Shown: in pieces, positions 2,355-6,740 of the stretch
Layout of the letters: every line of letters begins with the position of its first letter
Position numbering within the stretch: position 1 is the first letter of the stretch
Translations under genes and position numbers: made by a program
Origin: Bordetella genomosp. 8
GTDB lineage: Bacteria > Pseudomonadota > Gammaproteobacteria > Burkholderiales > Burkholderiaceae_B
Direction of reading: 5' to 3'
NCBI RefSeq assembly: GCF_002119685.1
Contig: NZ_CP021108.1
Span: 3,720,001 to 3,784,000 of the forward strand
Length of the DNA stretch: 64,000 nucleotides
The notes under the pieces: model-generated
The model's input: the letters and a program-made list of their open reading frames with translations, nothing else
The model's database searches: none
Told to the model about the DNA's origin: nothing

Positions 2355-2660
2355 CTAACAGCGACGGTTGGGCTCAGTTGCATTCTGATTGTTCATCTGC
2401 GCAACGACCTGGAGTATTGAAATAAGGCTACGGAAGATGACCTTTACTGTCATATAGAGAATGACTGCCGTCGCAAGTATGCAAACAGCTGACACTATCC
2501 CTTGATTGTCATGCAAGACCTTTGAAACCACATCGAACGCGCCTTCATCGATATTCACTGCTGTGCTGATCGTGATCAGCGGCTTAATTTCACTCACCTG
2601 GTCTCCTACACGTCTGCCGAGTGCTACAGCGGCCCTGATGTGCATTAAAGTGGTTAGCAC
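2355..2660 (-). CDS. Hypothetical small membrane protein
   Basis: A 101-codon frame from a GTG at 2660, or 96 codons from an ATG at 2645. No convincing ribosome site precedes either start. The one clear feature is a hydrophobic segment in the second half (IVSAVCILATAVILYMTVKV), a probable single membrane helix followed by a short polar tail ending in NQNATEPNRRC. I do not recognise the family. It lies 43 bp downstream of the next gene on the same strand and may be co-transcribed with it. Base use is AT-richer than the core genes, which fits acquired DNA. Confidence 0.45.
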   Translation of the reverse strand: MLTTLMHIRAAVALGRRVGDQVSEIKPLITISTAVNIDEGAFDVVSKVLHDNQGIVSAVCILATAVILYMTVKVIFRSLISILQVVAQMNNQNATEPNRRC

Positions 2661-2703
2661 CGAATTTTTCTAGGAAACAACTCAGGAGAATTCTTGCCAA
2701 GTT

Positions 2704-3249
2704 TCAGCCCTTCAGGCGGGGATCAGGGATCTTTTGCGCCAACACACCATCGCAATACTTGCGCATGTGTTTTCCAAGGGCATTCTCAATAGCCTCAGTG
2801 GAAACGTCGCACCGTTTGGCAATTAGCTCGCGCGCCAAGTTCTTGGAGATGCCGTACTCCACGACCAACAAGAAGAACGCCCATCTGACATTAGCGCGTG
2901 AAATTTTCGGAATAGCTCCCGCGGACCGTACTGGTGGCTCGAAGTCAGGTTCACCTTCGAAAAGCAAAATAGCGAAGGGACGCGACCACGGGAGGTCCGG
3001 GAAGCGCATCGGTTCTGCTGCAACCATACGAACGATCGCAGCGATCAACGTAGGGTTCCAAAGATATTGGTCTGCCTCGATCTCATCCGCCATCTTACGA
3101 AGGTGCTGCGCCCGACTATCCATCAACTCATCAATTCGTAGACAGCCGCCAACGATCTTGTCGCTCATTAGTTCGAAGACCGAGGCAGCTACGGTCTCAT
3201 CTCTCTTTCGTCTCGCTTGACGAGTCAGCTTTACGTTTGCATGCGGCAT
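2704..3249 (-). CDS. Hypothetical protein, 181 aa
   Basis: This 181-aa protein starts at an ATG (3249) preceded by GGAG at suitable spacing. The N-terminus is basic (MPHANVKLTRQARRKRDETV), then a helical body. The C-terminal third carries NLARELIAKRCDVSTEAIEN, which resembles a helix-turn-helix (ARELIAKRCDVSTEAI), so DNA binding is possible but not shown. I do not recognise the family. It could form an operon with the small membrane protein downstream. Confidence 0.55.
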   Translation of the reverse strand: MPHANVKLTRQARRKRDETVAASVFELMSDKIVGGCLRIDELMDSRAQHLRKMADEIEADQYLWNPTLIAAIVRMVAAEPMRFPDLPWSRPFAILLFEGEPDFEPPVRSAGAIPKISRANVRWAFFLLVVEYGISKNLARELIAKRCDVSTEAIENALGKHMRKYCDGVLAQKIPDPRLKG

Positions 3250-3847: not shown

Positions 3848-4498
3848 TTACAGTATCCGACCGAGCACCTCCTCGCCCCTCATTCGATGCACTTCGATCA
3901 CATAGCGTGCGATATCCGGTACGCTTTGATCGACCACCAGTTCTGCCACCGGCTTAACTGGCTTTCCCGAAGCCTTCGCAGGATAGTCAGCAATCCGACG
4001 GAACGTATCCGTCCCGCGCTGGTGGGGTACCGGCCACGTGTTGCCAGAATTCATATGGCAAAGCCATATTCGATCTCTGTAGTGGCGGATGAACGAAGCC
4101 GCATCGATTGTCAACACATCATGCTCAAGTGCCCGATAGTCTCTCGCATTGAGCAAACCTATCAATCTCTCCCGTGTCGCCCAAAAGAAAACCTTGGCAT
4201 TGATCATGCGGTACCACGCTTCCGGGGTAATCCCGTCCTGCAGAGCGGCCAAAAGCCGGCTTCGAGGCATCGGTTTTTGATCACGGAGCACAATTCCTTC
4301 CGGATGCTTAGCAAGCACTTCCATTTTTCTCGGACGCTGCATGCTCTCGTAGGGTGCCCGGTCATCACCTTCTAATTGAAAGTAGTCCAGCACAGCACTT
4401 GCGCTTAGCAGCCCGCGCGCGCTTATACTCTCCCATGTACCGCACTCCGCCATGTGATATAGCCGCGGGTACAACTCAATCAGTTTATCTATTTCCAT
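3848..4498 (-). CDS. DUF7002-like protein, putative ADP-ribosyltransferase fold
   Basis: This 216-aa protein is the third gene of the cassette. An in-frame TTG upstream (4543) would overlap the ligase gene. I prefer the ATG at 4498, 4 nt after the ligase stop, giving MEIDKLIELYPRLYHMAECG. The opening LYHMAECGTWESISARGLLS (13-32) resembles proteins annotated DUF7002 and the first strand-helix of ART folds such as DarT and KptA. It is followed by KVFFWATRERL (102-112), NTWPVPHQRGTDTFRRI (153-169) and PVAELVVDQSVPDI (183-196). In DarT-like enzymes the catalytic Glu lies in a comparable xAExLV-VP segment, so Glu186 and His15 are candidate active-site residues. The ART activity is inference. It could be an effector or a nucleotide-handling partner of the kinase/ligase pair. 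Confidence 0.7.
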   Translation of the reverse strand: MEIDKLIELYPRLYHMAECGTWESISARGLLSASAVLDYFQLEGDDRAPYESMQRPRKMEVLAKHPEGIVLRDQKPMPRSRLLAALQDGITPEAWYRMINAKVFFWATRERLIGLLNARDYRALEHDVLTIDAASFIRHYRDRIWLCHMNSGNTWPVPHQRGTDTFRRIADYPAKASGKPVKPVAELVVDQSVPDIARYVIEVHRMRGEEVLGRIL

Positions 4499-4502
4499 GC
4501 TG

Positions 4503-6191
4503 TTATTTTGAGTGGGTACGTGCCATCCAGTTTCGTCGATCAATTAGCGAGCGCAGATCTTCGGTACCATCCTCTTCCCGAGGGAAACGCGTGTTAATAA
4601 GGGAAACCGGAGCTTGCGAAACCCGCTCCAGCTCCTCCACGAACTTGATGGTGTCAGGGGTCAACTGTTCGAAACGCCGCGCGTTTCGATTACTAGCGTC
4701 GAGATAGTCTGCGAAGGTTAAGACGATATCTGTCGGAGCATTCAGCGCGCAAGCCTTCCGGAATTGCTCCCACTCAAACCATCCGACCCGGCGTTTCCGC
4801 TTTGTCGTGGAAGTCTTTTCTGCCCGATGCAACGCCGTTGCGTCAAGCTTTGCACGTTTGGCAATCTCGTCAAACGTTGTATCGTGCTTCAGAGGACCAG
4901 ATGTATGTCCTTGGTCGCCATCAGGATCGCCCACCCGGATCGGCATCGGCCGTATCACCATCAGGATTTTCCGTACCCGGCTTGGGGAAATGCCAGCCTC
5001 GGCAAGACACCCCGCGACATTGGTATCGCGTGAGGTCACATACGGGTAGGTCCCATGGAAAAGACTCAGCCCGCTCCCCTGGGTACCCTCAAGCAGGATA
5101 GATTGTCCTTTACGGTAAGCCTCCTCAAGCCTGTCTGCAGTCGTACCATGGTAATTACCTTTCGTACCCACGTACGGTGCGAGCGCCGGAACGTCTTTGG
5201 CCATACGAAAATTCGACTTTCCACGGCTCAATATACGTCGCGCTGTCGCCGCGCCGCTGCCGCTACCTGTCGATGCGATCGTCGAAACGAGATGCGCTCC
5301 CTCTCTCTCGACATCCTCATCTTCGATGATAGTAGCTTGCGGGTCTATAAAAAGCCGGTCCGGCCCAATATTGCAGTCGCAGATCTCATCAAAGAGCCCC
5401 TTCAGGCGAATTGTCATGCCGGGACCAAGCAACAAGCGACTGTCAACGTCGCGCGCACCGGAAGGCAGGTGGTGATAGGTGTATGGTCCCTGCGTGCTCG
5501 CGACCGTATGCCCTGCGTTTGGACCGCCAACCCTCACTATGACGTCATATTCGCGAGCGAGGTAAGAAACAACATTACCTTTGCCTTCGCTTCCATACTG
5601 ACCGCCAATCAGAACGTCAACACAACGAATCTCGGGAGGCGTATAGAGATGCAAGCGGGCAGCCACCCGGACCAGCGTATCCCTTGCATCAGACCGCGTG
5701 GTGTAGATACGGACATCAGCATCGTCCTTGAGTGCGCGGATGTCCTCCTCGTCCTTCAGGTGGTCGATCTCGGCATACGCGGGCGCGCCTTCCCGCTGTC
5801 CCTCCGTGTGTGCGTAGCGCTCCTGCAGTGTCTGGTTGCTCGCATACAGATGCACATGAATCAAGTCCTCTCCGAAAACCCTCCGAAATTGGGCGACTTG
5901 CGCAGGAGTGCTGAGATGGTCAACAACAATCGATCTGTCTGGATCCAGTCCCCTCAAAACCTCTTGGGTCGCGTGAAGCAACCATTTTGAATCGGTGGCT
6001 TTGTCGGCTGTCACGCCACGCGCGATCAATGTCTGCCTGTCATCCCAGAATTTTTCCGGATTATCGAGTTTGGCCAATACCTGTCTGGTACGCACTACCC
6101 GGAAGTGAAACTCCCTTTCGAGGAGATTTGCCAGCCCTGTCTTGCCACTGCACGTCTTTCCGCTGATGACCACGATCTGGCGATTATGCAT
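4503..6191 (-). CDS. P-loop kinase fused to PurZ/PurA-like ligase
   Basis: A 562-aa two-domain protein. Residues 1-185 form a nucleoside-monophosphate-kinase-like P-loop domain with Walker A GKTCSGKT (11-18). Residues 189-562 form an adenylosuccinate-synthetase-family ligase: GQYGSEGKGN (197-206), NAGHT (225-229), STGSGSGAATARR (307-319), EGTQG (368-372), HGTYPYVTS (379-387), STTKRKRR (461-468). PurA joins IMP and aspartate using GTP. Here its catalytic base Asp (GDEGKG) is Ser201, while the catalytic His is kept (His228). As I recall, Asp-to-Ser is the signature of phage PurZ, which acts on dGMP on the way to 2-aminoadenine. PurA's base-recognition TKLD reads TFAD (492-495), so GTP preference may also be altered. 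Substrates are unproven. It starts 3 nt after the kinase gene and is followed at 4 nt by the DUF7002-like gene. Confidence 0.85.
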   Translation of the reverse strand: MHNRQIVVISGKTCSGKTGLANLLEREFHFRVVRTRQVLAKLDNPEKFWDDRQTLIARGVTADKATDSKWLLHATQEVLRGLDPDRSIVVDHLSTPAQVAQFRRVFGEDLIHVHLYASNQTLQERYAHTEGQREGAPAYAEIDHLKDEEDIRALKDDADVRIYTTRSDARDTLVRVAARLHLYTPPEIRCVDVLIGGQYGSEGKGNVVSYLAREYDVIVRVGGPNAGHTVASTQGPYTYHHLPSGARDVDSRLLLGPGMTIRLKGLFDEICDCNIGPDRLFIDPQATIIEDEDVEREGAHLVSTIASTGSGSGAATARRILSRGKSNFRMAKDVPALAPYVGTKGNYHGTTADRLEEAYRKGQSILLEGTQGSGLSLFHGTYPYVTSRDTNVAGCLAEAGISPSRVRKILMVIRPMPIRVGDPDGDQGHTSGPLKHDTTFDEIAKRAKLDATALHRAEKTSTTKRKRRVGWFEWEQFRKACALNAPTDIVLTFADYLDASNRNARRFEQLTPDTIKFVEELERVSQAPVSLINTRFPREEDGTEDLRSLIDRRNWMARTHSK

Positions 6192-6194
6192 GGG

Positions 6195-6740
6195 TCAGGC
6201 TCTCCAAAGATGAATGATCTGCTTTGCGATCTCCAACGCCGAAGCTTGCGAAGTGTCGAAAGTTTGGTCAGCAAAGACACCTAACGAACTGGCGGCCACT
6301 TCATTCGGGTGTGCAATCGCGGACGAATAGGTAGGGTCGCCCGCCGAAAGCCCCGCTGCATACCGGACCTGCAGGATCGACTCTGGTGCGTAAAGGTGAA
6401 CATGCCGCACAGCGTAGGGAGACCACGCCCGGAAGTGCTCGACTTGGCGTGGCTTTCGGACTGCGTCGATCAACCAGCTTTCAGTTGCGGGCGCTGCCTC
6501 CATTGCAGGAATAGCGACCGAGTCAACAACCCATGCAAAATCGGTTTCCTGGTCTAGCTGATCGCCGAGATTTTGCATCCACGAACGCGTGACGTCACCG
6601 CTCGCTGGGTGAATATGACTCTTGAGATACCCACTGGTGCTAATGCCTTGAAAATTATAATTTTCCTTAAGCACCTGTGCGAGCGAGCTTTTTCCAGACC
6701 GCATTTGGCCGCTAAGAAGCAGCAATCGCTTGACCGTCAT
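6195..6740 (-). CDS. P-loop nucleotide kinase, first gene of cassette
   Basis: This 181-aa P-loop protein resembles (deoxy)nucleoside monophosphate kinases. The ATG at 6740 (MTVKRLLLLSGQMRSGKSSL) is chosen because GGGAG lies 7 nt upstream; an earlier in-frame TTG at 6785 has no such site. Walker A is GQMRSGKS (11-18). WLIDAVRKPRQVEHFR near residues 89-104 matches the DVRxPxE-type segment of dNMP kinases and is followed by HVHLYAPE. The same layout occurs in the kinase half of the next protein (VVDHLSTPAQVAQFRR, HVHLYASN), so the two kinases are paralogues. Stop and next start are 3 nt apart, so the genes are translated as one operon. A plausible role is phosphorylating a substrate or product of the ligase; this is inference. 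Confidence 0.75.
   Translation of the reverse strand: MTVKRLLLLSGQMRSGKSSLAQVLKENYNFQGISTSGYLKSHIHPASGDVTRSWMQNLGDQLDQETDFAWVVDSVAIPAMEAAPATESWLIDAVRKPRQVEHFRAWSPYAVRHVHLYAPESILQVRYAAGLSAGDPTYSSAIAHPNEVAASSLGVFADQTFDTSQASALEIAKQIIHLWRA

What the first reader, a model, noticed from the sequence alone, without database searches (positions are those of the whole stretch)
3848..6740. Three-gene kinase / kinase-ligase fusion / ART-like cassette
Three genes with 3- and 4-nt spacing and one good promoter encode a P-loop kinase, a P-loop kinase fused to an adenylosuccinate-synthetase-like ligase, and a DUF7002-like protein with ART-like motifs. I know of no described system with this set. The pieces suggest production or sensing of a modified purine nucleotide coupled to an ADP-ribosylating effector, for example in phage defence or base modification. 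The combination and spacing are seen directly; the function is inference.
Basis: partly seen in the sequence, partly recalled or inferred. Interest (0 to 1): 0.93.

Follow-up and report, generated by a model that had tools for sequence, protein, structure and literature searches.

The report
PurZ-type ligase, kinase and DarT-fold cassette
Bacterial genomes, plasmids and phage-like DNA carry, again and again side by side, a kinase fused to an enzyme that resembles the one some phages use to make an unusual DNA base, and a protein predicted to attach ADP-ribose to its target; together they likely form an anti-phage defence that would work through a modified nucleotide.

The parts
6195..6740 (-). 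Kinase A: separate P-loop nucleotide-kinase-like protein, 181 aa
   Evidence: AAA_18 1.3e-6; PHROG deoxynucleoside monophosphate kinase 3.2e-6; keeps P-loop and a D-A-V-R-K motif
4503..6191 (-). Fusion: N-terminal P-loop kinase-like domain (about 1-185) and C-terminal PurZ-type ligase (about 191-562)
   Evidence: Pfam/PHROG/NCBIfam; model pLDDT 83.5 with PurA/PurZ and adenylate-kinase-like matches; PurZ-type residues
3848..4498 (-). DUF7002 protein, predicted DarT-fold ADP-ribosyltransferase, 216 aa
6835..6863 (-). Promoter-like site upstream of kinase A (TTGACT-17-TATCTT)
   Evidence: Consensus scan, 9 of 12 positions; weak evidence

Best explanation
The cassette is likely an anti-phage defence operon in which a PurZ-type ligase with a built-in kinase domain and a separate kinase would turn a guanine deoxynucleotide into a modified purine nucleotide that would switch on a predicted DarT-fold ADP-ribosyltransferase. 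Shown by sequence: the gene set, its repeated linkage, the PurZ-type active site, the loss of the inter-subunit arginine, the two kinase paralogues, and defence genes beside several loci. Predicted: the DarT fold. Inferred: infection would raise the pool of the ligase's substrate (a dGMP-like nucleotide, for example from degraded host DNA); the ligase would join aspartate to it; the kinases would phosphorylate substrate or product; the product would bind and release the ART, which would use NAD+ to modify nucleic acid and stop phage replication or the cell. The lost arginine suggests that the substrate differs from free dGMP at its 5' end, or that a partner protein completes the site.
For: Linkage: fusion and DUF7002 adjacent in the window and 18 loci; of 398 Pseudomonadota genomes 4 have the full fusion, 5 have DUF7002 over the cut-off, 3 have both. 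The overlap has p 3.8e-6, or 2.3e-4 with the centre genome left out; neither allows for kinship. PurZ type: Ser for Asp in the window protein and all 120 listed homologues, out of 6884 found; S/T/PIRV/insertion residues; PurA a separate clade 100/100. DarT fold. Patchy: 1 of 23 genomes of one genus; housekeeping PurA besides in 4 of 4. Defence neighbours: GajA/GajB in L004 and L008, RdrA/RdrB in L006, SIR2 in L056, type I REase in L084, PDC-S19 in L079; AbiE beside L056; AbiJ-NTD4 near L007. Changing partners argue for an enzyme plus an exchangeable effector: a weakly metallopeptidase-like gene in L071 and L086; a dCTP-deaminase-like protein beside short PurZ-like ligases in L059 and L022. Parallel: Kongming uses a dNMP kinase, a non-canonical deoxynucleotide signal and NAD+ loss (PMC12948488, passage).
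Against: No activity of any of the three proteins has been measured. The lost arginine (0 of 19) may mean weak or no ligase activity on nucleotides. Six of 13 DUF7002-linked relatives in the residue table have the PurA-like Gly at one PurZ position, and the window has the PurA-like Asp at another. Four distant DUF7002 relatives (G304, G330 and two plasmid records) have no fusion beside them, so such proteins can do other things. Two loci (L003, L071) keep kinase A and fusion without DUF7002. For L002, L003, L071, L072 and L073 I identified no named defence system, though I scanned only a few of their ORFs singly. Kinase-PurZ fusions also occur in viral contigs near DNA polymerase genes, which fits nucleotide supply rather than signalling.
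Confidence: 0.38

Rival explanations
1. Guarded toxin: the DarT-fold protein would be a constitutive toxin held off by the kinase-ligase proteins (by binding it or by reversing or using up its product), and phage-caused changes in deoxynucleotide pools would release it.
For: DarT is a toxin paired with a macrodomain or NADAR antitoxin (PMC9503650, passages); in the nine genomes searched no macrodomain lies near the cassette and none has a NADAR match to play that part. Tight gene spacing; each DUF7002 of at least 40% identity in the fetched loci has the fusion beside it, save L068, where the contig ends.
Against: I know of no antitoxin that is a ligase or kinase of this kind (recalled, not searched); conserved P-loop Lys, ligase Ser, Thr and Val suggest turnover rather than mere binding.
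Confidence: 0.22
2. Poison nucleotide: the ligase and kinases would make a modified purine deoxynucleotide (2-aminoadenine-like or its succinyl precursor) that is itself harmful when built into phage DNA, with the ART as a second, independent arm.
For: The phage Z-cluster datZ-mazZ-purZ was toxic in E. coli and put Z into its DNA (PMC8342488, passages). Ten loci without kinase A add an HD protein; the L007 copy matches phage dNMP phosphatases at 2.2e-62 and dATP triphosphohydrolase at 4e-7.
Against: No DNA polymerase is annotated beside the cassette in the six annotated plasmid stretches; the arginine lost from the ligase is kept in 24 of 24 unfused viral ligases read.
Confidence: 0.13
3. Base modification for self-protection: plasmids and prophages would use the cassette to change their own purines and escape restriction, as Z-phages do.
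For: Occurrence on conjugative plasmids and in viral contigs; kinase-PurZ fusions near DNA polymerase genes in viral contigs.
Against: Also found on large genome contigs; S-2L and phiVC8 have no gene annotated as ART, and their PurZ keep the arginine.
Confidence: 0.09
4. Ordinary accessory metabolism: the fusion salvages a purine, and DUF7002 happens to be carried along.
For: The enzyme parts have metabolic relatives.
Against: Repeated linkage with a predicted ART in two gene orders, patchy presence and defence-gene neighbours; separate housekeeping PurA in 4 of 4 relatives.
Confidence: 0.1

Closest known systems
PurZ, 2-amino-adenylosuccinate synthetase of Z-genome phages (S-2L, phiVC8)
   Same: Ser for the catalytic Asp, S131- and T273-type residues, PIRV loop with an insertion, intact nucleotide loop
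   Different: Fused to a kinase, carried by bacteria beside a predicted ART gene, lacks the inter-subunit Arg, Asp at the Q308 position, below the NCBIfam PurZ cut-off
DarT toxin of DarTG (DarT1 8baq, DarTG 7omu)
   Same: Predicted fold: top seven structural matches are DarT; N-terminal motif alignable to DarT1 at E 0.0024, a score that an unrelated protein also reached
   Different: Separate Pfam family DUF7002; no macrodomain or NADAR partner near it in nine genomes; substrate unknown
Kongming (KomA-KomB-KomC with a dNMP kinase)
   Same: Deoxynucleotide-modifying enzyme, dNMP kinase step, NAD+-using effector, by a review passage
   Different: Ligase instead of deaminase (recalled), own kinases instead of the phage's, predicted ART instead of the Kongming effector; no Kom-like domain in the three proteins
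Anti-phage dCTP deaminase (PADLOC dCTPase, AvcD-type)
   Same: Weak match of the fused kinase domain to positions 156-296 of the 630-position PADLOC dCTPase model (2.3e-4)
   Different: No deaminase domain found; C-terminal PurZ-type ligase instead

Membership tests
PurZ | Ser in place of the PurA catalytic Asp | tested here: met
   GSEGKG in the window protein and 120 of 120 listed homologues; published as Ser in 100% of 147 phage PurZ (PMC12884076, passage)
PurZ | Other PurZ-specific residues and the insertion that favours deoxyribose | tested here: met
   S, T and PIRV plus insertion DPDGDQGHT in the window ligase, where PurA rows have T, G and xxRVGxGPF/Y (features from PMC8342488 passages). 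Not all: the window has PurA-like Asp at the Q308 position, as one PurZ0-like phage row does; 6 of 13 DUF7002-linked relatives in the table have PurA-like Gly at the T273 position, and several have a shorter insertion
PurZ | Inter-subunit Arg that pairs with the nucleotide phosphate | tested here: not met
   Ser322 in the window; 0 of 19 DUF7002-linked ligases (window included) and 0 of 2 fusions without DUF7002 have Arg
PurZ | Reaches the NCBIfam PurZ cut-off (NF038379, 300 bits) | tested here: not met
   199.8 bits
PurZ | Groups with phage PurZ in a tree | tested here: inconclusive
   Fusion clade 96/96, next to S-2L and phiVC8 PurZ at 83/82 only; S-2L has a long branch
PurZ | Ligates aspartate to dGMP | not testable with these tools
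   Needs an enzyme assay
PurA (housekeeping) | Catalytic Asp13 | tested here: not met
   Ser
PurA (housekeeping) | Sole adenylosuccinate synthetase of the cell | tested here: not met
   Full-length PurA besides the fusion in 4 of 4 relatives' genomes; the window's own genome is not held
DarT / DarTG | DarT fold | tested here: met
DarT / DarTG | Match to the DarT Pfam family | tested here: not met
   Only DUF7002 is listed at E up to 1
DarT / DarTG | DarG macrodomain or NADAR antitoxin beside the toxin | tested here: not met
   Nine relatives' genomes: macrodomain matches in 6, on other contigs or about 1 Mb away, none in 3; NADAR 0 of 9. In the window only the five ORFs between 2355 and 6740 were scanned for Pfam domains
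DarT / DarTG | ADP-ribosylates DNA | not testable with these tools
   Needs an assay
Kongming | Adenosine-deaminase-type, HAM1-type and SIR2-type components (domain types recalled) | tested here: not met
   None of these domains listed for the three proteins at E up to 1
Anti-phage defence system (functional class) | Located among defence genes and patchy between relatives | tested here: met
   Gabija, RADAR, type I REase, SIR2 beside some loci; DUF7002 in 1 of 23 and 5 of 398 genomes; the enrichment comparison is not calibrated
Anti-phage defence system (functional class) | Protects cells against phage | not testable with these tools
   Needs plating assays

The most novel reading that the evidence does not exclude
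Bacteria took over the Z-genome chemistry of phages for immunity: a PurZ-type ligase with its own kinases writes a new deoxynucleotide second messenger from guanine nucleotides, and exchangeable effectors (DarT-fold ART, metallopeptidase-like protein, dCTP-deaminase-like protein with a membrane segment) read it.
Probability: 0.22. Interest if true: 0.95.

Novelty: new variant of a known kind. Interest (0 to 1): 0.8.

Why it matters
If right, an enzyme class known from phages that replace adenine in their own DNA has been turned into a bacterial defence, with a ligase-made nucleotide as signal or trigger and a DarT-fold protein as effector. It would explain what DUF7002 is for, widen the set of immune nucleotides beyond cyclic nucleotides and dITP, and link guanine deoxynucleotide pools to infection sensing. 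It can be tested with three genes in E. coli K-12 and one LC-MS run.

Tried and rejected
Housekeeping PurA replacement: rejected, since a full PurA exists in 4 of 4 relatives tested and the ligase lacks the PurA Asp. DarTG membership: rejected, no macrodomain or NADAR partner near it in nine genomes. Zeta toxin for the fused kinase domain: only 0.0015 and below the Pfam cut-off, and the fold matches listed for that part are adenylate-kinase-like or kinase-like.

The 240-aa gene that overlaps the start of kinase A in L071 and L077, where DUF7002 is missing, looked ART-like to my eye. A profile comparison with DUF7002 gave probability 0.2% and the PDB sequence search gave nothing, so I do not claim it as an effector.

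PADLOC neighbourhood test: 180 families at E <= 1e-10 among 108 ORFs beside 12 loci, against 29 among 111 ORFs of 12 control windows from the same genomes or plasmids. Only 25 families of each are shown, they are highly redundant (many GajB models) and per-protein counts are not given, so this is not a calibrated test; one control window also held AbiE genes, and the generic models mad3 and mad8 match control ORFs (6 and 4), with mad3 at 3 among the case ORFs. The 12 loci are those with matched controls; two of them (L071, L077) lack DUF7002. The 108 leave out 42 ORFs that matched cassette genes; the controls leave out six further windows (L164, L166, L168, L170, L172, L174) that I fetched but could not fit under the residue limit.

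Searches that led nowhere: single-protein scan of viral contigs; own-genome search; DUF7002 and kinase A against PDB sequences (only talin-type matches with E 0.0068 or worse; none). No paper held 'DUF7002', nor 'adenylosuccinate synthetase' with 'anti-phage' and 'defense system', nor 'adenylosuccinate synthase' with 'defense island' and 'phage'; I saw titles and starts of abstracts, none on such a cassette. No bioRxiv text is held, so unpublished or subscription work could be missed.

Rows dropped: in the script thirteen loci gave no ligase by its pattern (L006, L007, L054, L057, L058, L087, L090, L096, L100, L104, L105, L109, L110) and are missing from the residue table and the tree; six of them were read (L006, L007, L054, L057, L058, L087). 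The row of Bacillus phage BpsS-140 was misaligned there and was left out of the tree. phiVC8 was not read by the script but shows Arg. Of the 80 viral loci, L112-L158 were only screened for cassette genes.
Full report
WHAT IS THERE. On the - strand lie kinase A (6195-6740), a kinase-ligase fusion (4503-6191) and a DUF7002 protein (3848-4498), 3 and 4 nt apart. A promoter-like site lies 95 nt upstream of kinase A. G+C of the 1-kb bins from 2 to 9 kb is 0.52-0.58, while the bins from 16 kb on are 0.61-0.73; 13-16 kb is low too. This fits a horizontally gained stretch. No genome is held for the window; the closest fusion in the protein search is from Trinickia symbiotica, 93%.

THE SET RECURS. 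A scan of species genomes with the fusion gave four loci with full-length relatives at 59-79% and one distant ligase. Further loci came from plasmids, genome samples and viral contigs. Fusions beside DUF7002: the window, L001, L002, L004, L006, L007, L008, L054-L058, L069, L070, L072, L073, L079, L084 and L086, 19 in all. Six of the 19 also have kinase A: in the window, L002, L004 and L079 the order is kinase A, fusion, DUF7002; in L069 and L070 it is fusion, DUF7002, kinase A. L001 starts at the contig edge, so its kinase A cannot be judged. L003 and L071 have kinase A and fusion but no DUF7002. In L002 DUF7002 is split over two reading frames. L084 and L086 have none of these. All eight plasmid records in which one place covers at least 80% of the fusion also hold DUF7002, and 8 of the 10 plasmid records with DUF7002 hold the fusion.

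HOW RARE. Of 398 Pseudomonadota genomes 4 have a full fusion (a fifth strong match, G034, is a short ligase beside a kinase-like protein), 5 have DUF7002 over the cut-off (6 at E <= 0.001), and 3 have both. The overlap has p 3.8e-6, or 2.3e-4 without the centre genome; kinship is not corrected for. DUF7002 is in 1 of 23 genomes of the genus of G004, the centre itself, 4 of 349 of the family of G001 and 1 of 321 of the class of G004, again the centre. In G429 DUF7002 lies 0.2 kb from a contig end, with no fusion in the 10.7 kb on the other side.

THE LIGASE IS PURZ-TYPE. PurA has a catalytic Asp, kept in 99% of a published set, while Ser stands there in 100% of 147 phage PurZ (PMC12884076, passages). 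The window protein and all 120 listed homologues (of 6884 found) have Ser; five plasmid proteins that a stricter pattern missed also have it. PMC8342488 (passages) names Ser23, Thr273 and Gln308 as PurZ residues that touch the substrates, and an insertion that moves Val241 towards C2' of the sugar. The window ligase has the Ser, the Thr and the insertion, but Asp at the Gln308 position; 6 of 13 DUF7002-linked relatives in the table have the PurA-like Gly at the Thr position, and insertion length varies. In a tree of 51 rows, 7 PurA are one clade (100/100), the fusion ligases another (96/96), next to S-2L and phiVC8 PurZ with weak support (83/82). The model has PurA/PurZ at the C-terminus and an adenylate-kinase-like N-terminus. 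By score the single best PDB sequence and fold match is archaeal PurA of Pyrococcus, before PurZ, and the NCBIfam order is the same; the active-site residues are what point to PurZ.

A LOST ARGININE. In S-2L PurZ, R146 of the other subunit pairs with the phosphate of the bound nucleotide (PMC8342488, passage); E. coli PurA has the same Arg. The window has Ser322 in an ungapped stretch. By one script: Arg in 0 of 18 fetched DUF7002-linked ligases (0 of 19 with the window), 0 of 2 fusions without DUF7002, 5 of 7 viral-contig fusions, 24 of 24 unfused ligases that could be read of 25 given (viral contigs L089-L111, S-2L and phiVC8), 2 of 2 short bacterial ligases and 6 of 6 PurA. Among the 120 listed homologues 118 lack it. 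So the bacterial fused enzyme kept its nucleotide loop and PurZ marks but lost one phosphate contact made across the dimer. I infer a substrate with a different 5' end, or a partner that completes the site; loss of activity is also possible.

TWO KINASES. Kinase A keeps D-A-V-R-K or a close form, and the fused kinases of the ten loci with HD protein and of the viral contigs shown keep an R at that place, L079 excepted. In the window, L001, L002, L004 and L079 the fused domain reads D-H-[LV]-x-[ST]-P instead, and of the 120 listed homologues 102 have D-H there by a simple pattern, 15 not read. The loss goes with a separate kinase in four loci where both can be seen, which suggests shared labour; L003, L069 and L071 have kinase A and still keep R in the fused copy.

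SURROUNDINGS. L004 (Luteibacter) and L008 (Agrobacterium plasmid) have GajA and GajB beside the cassette, L006 (Rhizobium plasmid) RdrA and RdrB, L056 SIR2, L084 a type I restriction enzyme, L079 a PDC-S19 protein. L056 also has AbiE genes and L007 an AbiJ-NTD4 gene. In L079 all three genes sit in a 39.6-kb viral contig near an ORF that I read as a P2-type late-control gene (recalled motif), so a prophage is my reading. The broader PADLOC comparison points the same way but is not calibrated. For L002, L003, L071, L072 and L073 I identified no named system, having scanned few of their ORFs singly.

MECHANISM. Shown: parts, linkage, active-site state, neighbours. Predicted: DarT fold. Inferred: the ligase would act on a guanine deoxynucleotide when infection changes its pool, the kinases would act before or after it, and the product would control the ART. 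Kongming, as reviewed (PMC12948488, passage), offers the same logic with other enzymes: a modified deoxynucleotide made with a dNMP kinase sets off NAD+ loss. Exchange of the partner supports an enzyme-plus-effector design: a weakly metallopeptidase-like gene (L071, L086) and a dCTP-deaminase-like protein with a hydrophobic segment (read by eye) beside short PurZ-like ligases (L059, L022). The main rival, a guarded toxin, cannot be separated by sequence.

NOVELTY. Searches found no described system with this set (listings seen, not whole papers); PADLOC (2023) has no model that matches DUF7002 at E up to 1. The parts are known, the combination was not found. I score it as a new variant of nucleotide-based defence, with a bolder reading in the section on the most novel reading.

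Noticed in passing
L080, L081, L082, L083, L085, L087 (and L088, partial): Kinase-PurZ fusions without DUF7002 in viral contigs, in L081-L083 within a few kb of DNA polymerase A genes; possibly a group of modified-purine phages with a fused kinase.
   Followed up: partly
L059:7296-12048; L022/L074: Short PurZ-like ligases (Ser type, Arg kept) beside a dCTP-deaminase-like protein with a hydrophobic segment; in Sinorhizobium medicae also an HD protein and a ThiF-like protein. Three plasmid records hold that protein, all S. medicae.
   Followed up: partly
L077:7738-8511 and L071:8269-8994: A 240-aa family (379 homologues found, no Pfam match) overlaps the start of kinase A where DUF7002 is missing.
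   Followed up: partly
L009:7378-14941: Rhizobium leguminosarum plasmid cluster with folE, PurA-like ligase (Asp type), purB, queC, queE-like and IMP dehydrogenase genes, which looks like deazapurine biosynthesis.
   Followed up: no
L007:11102-12460 and nine relatives: Conserved 450-aa protein in all ten loci that have the HD protein beside a fusion; the L007 copy has no Pfam or PHROG match.
   Followed up: no
L051, L052 (G304, G330): Distant DUF7002 relatives without the fusion, next to an ORF that I read as enolase (recalled); a different role is likely.
   Followed up: no
window 2355-3249: Two small ORFs (101 and 181 aa) on the same strand beyond DUF7002 without clear family match.
   Followed up: no
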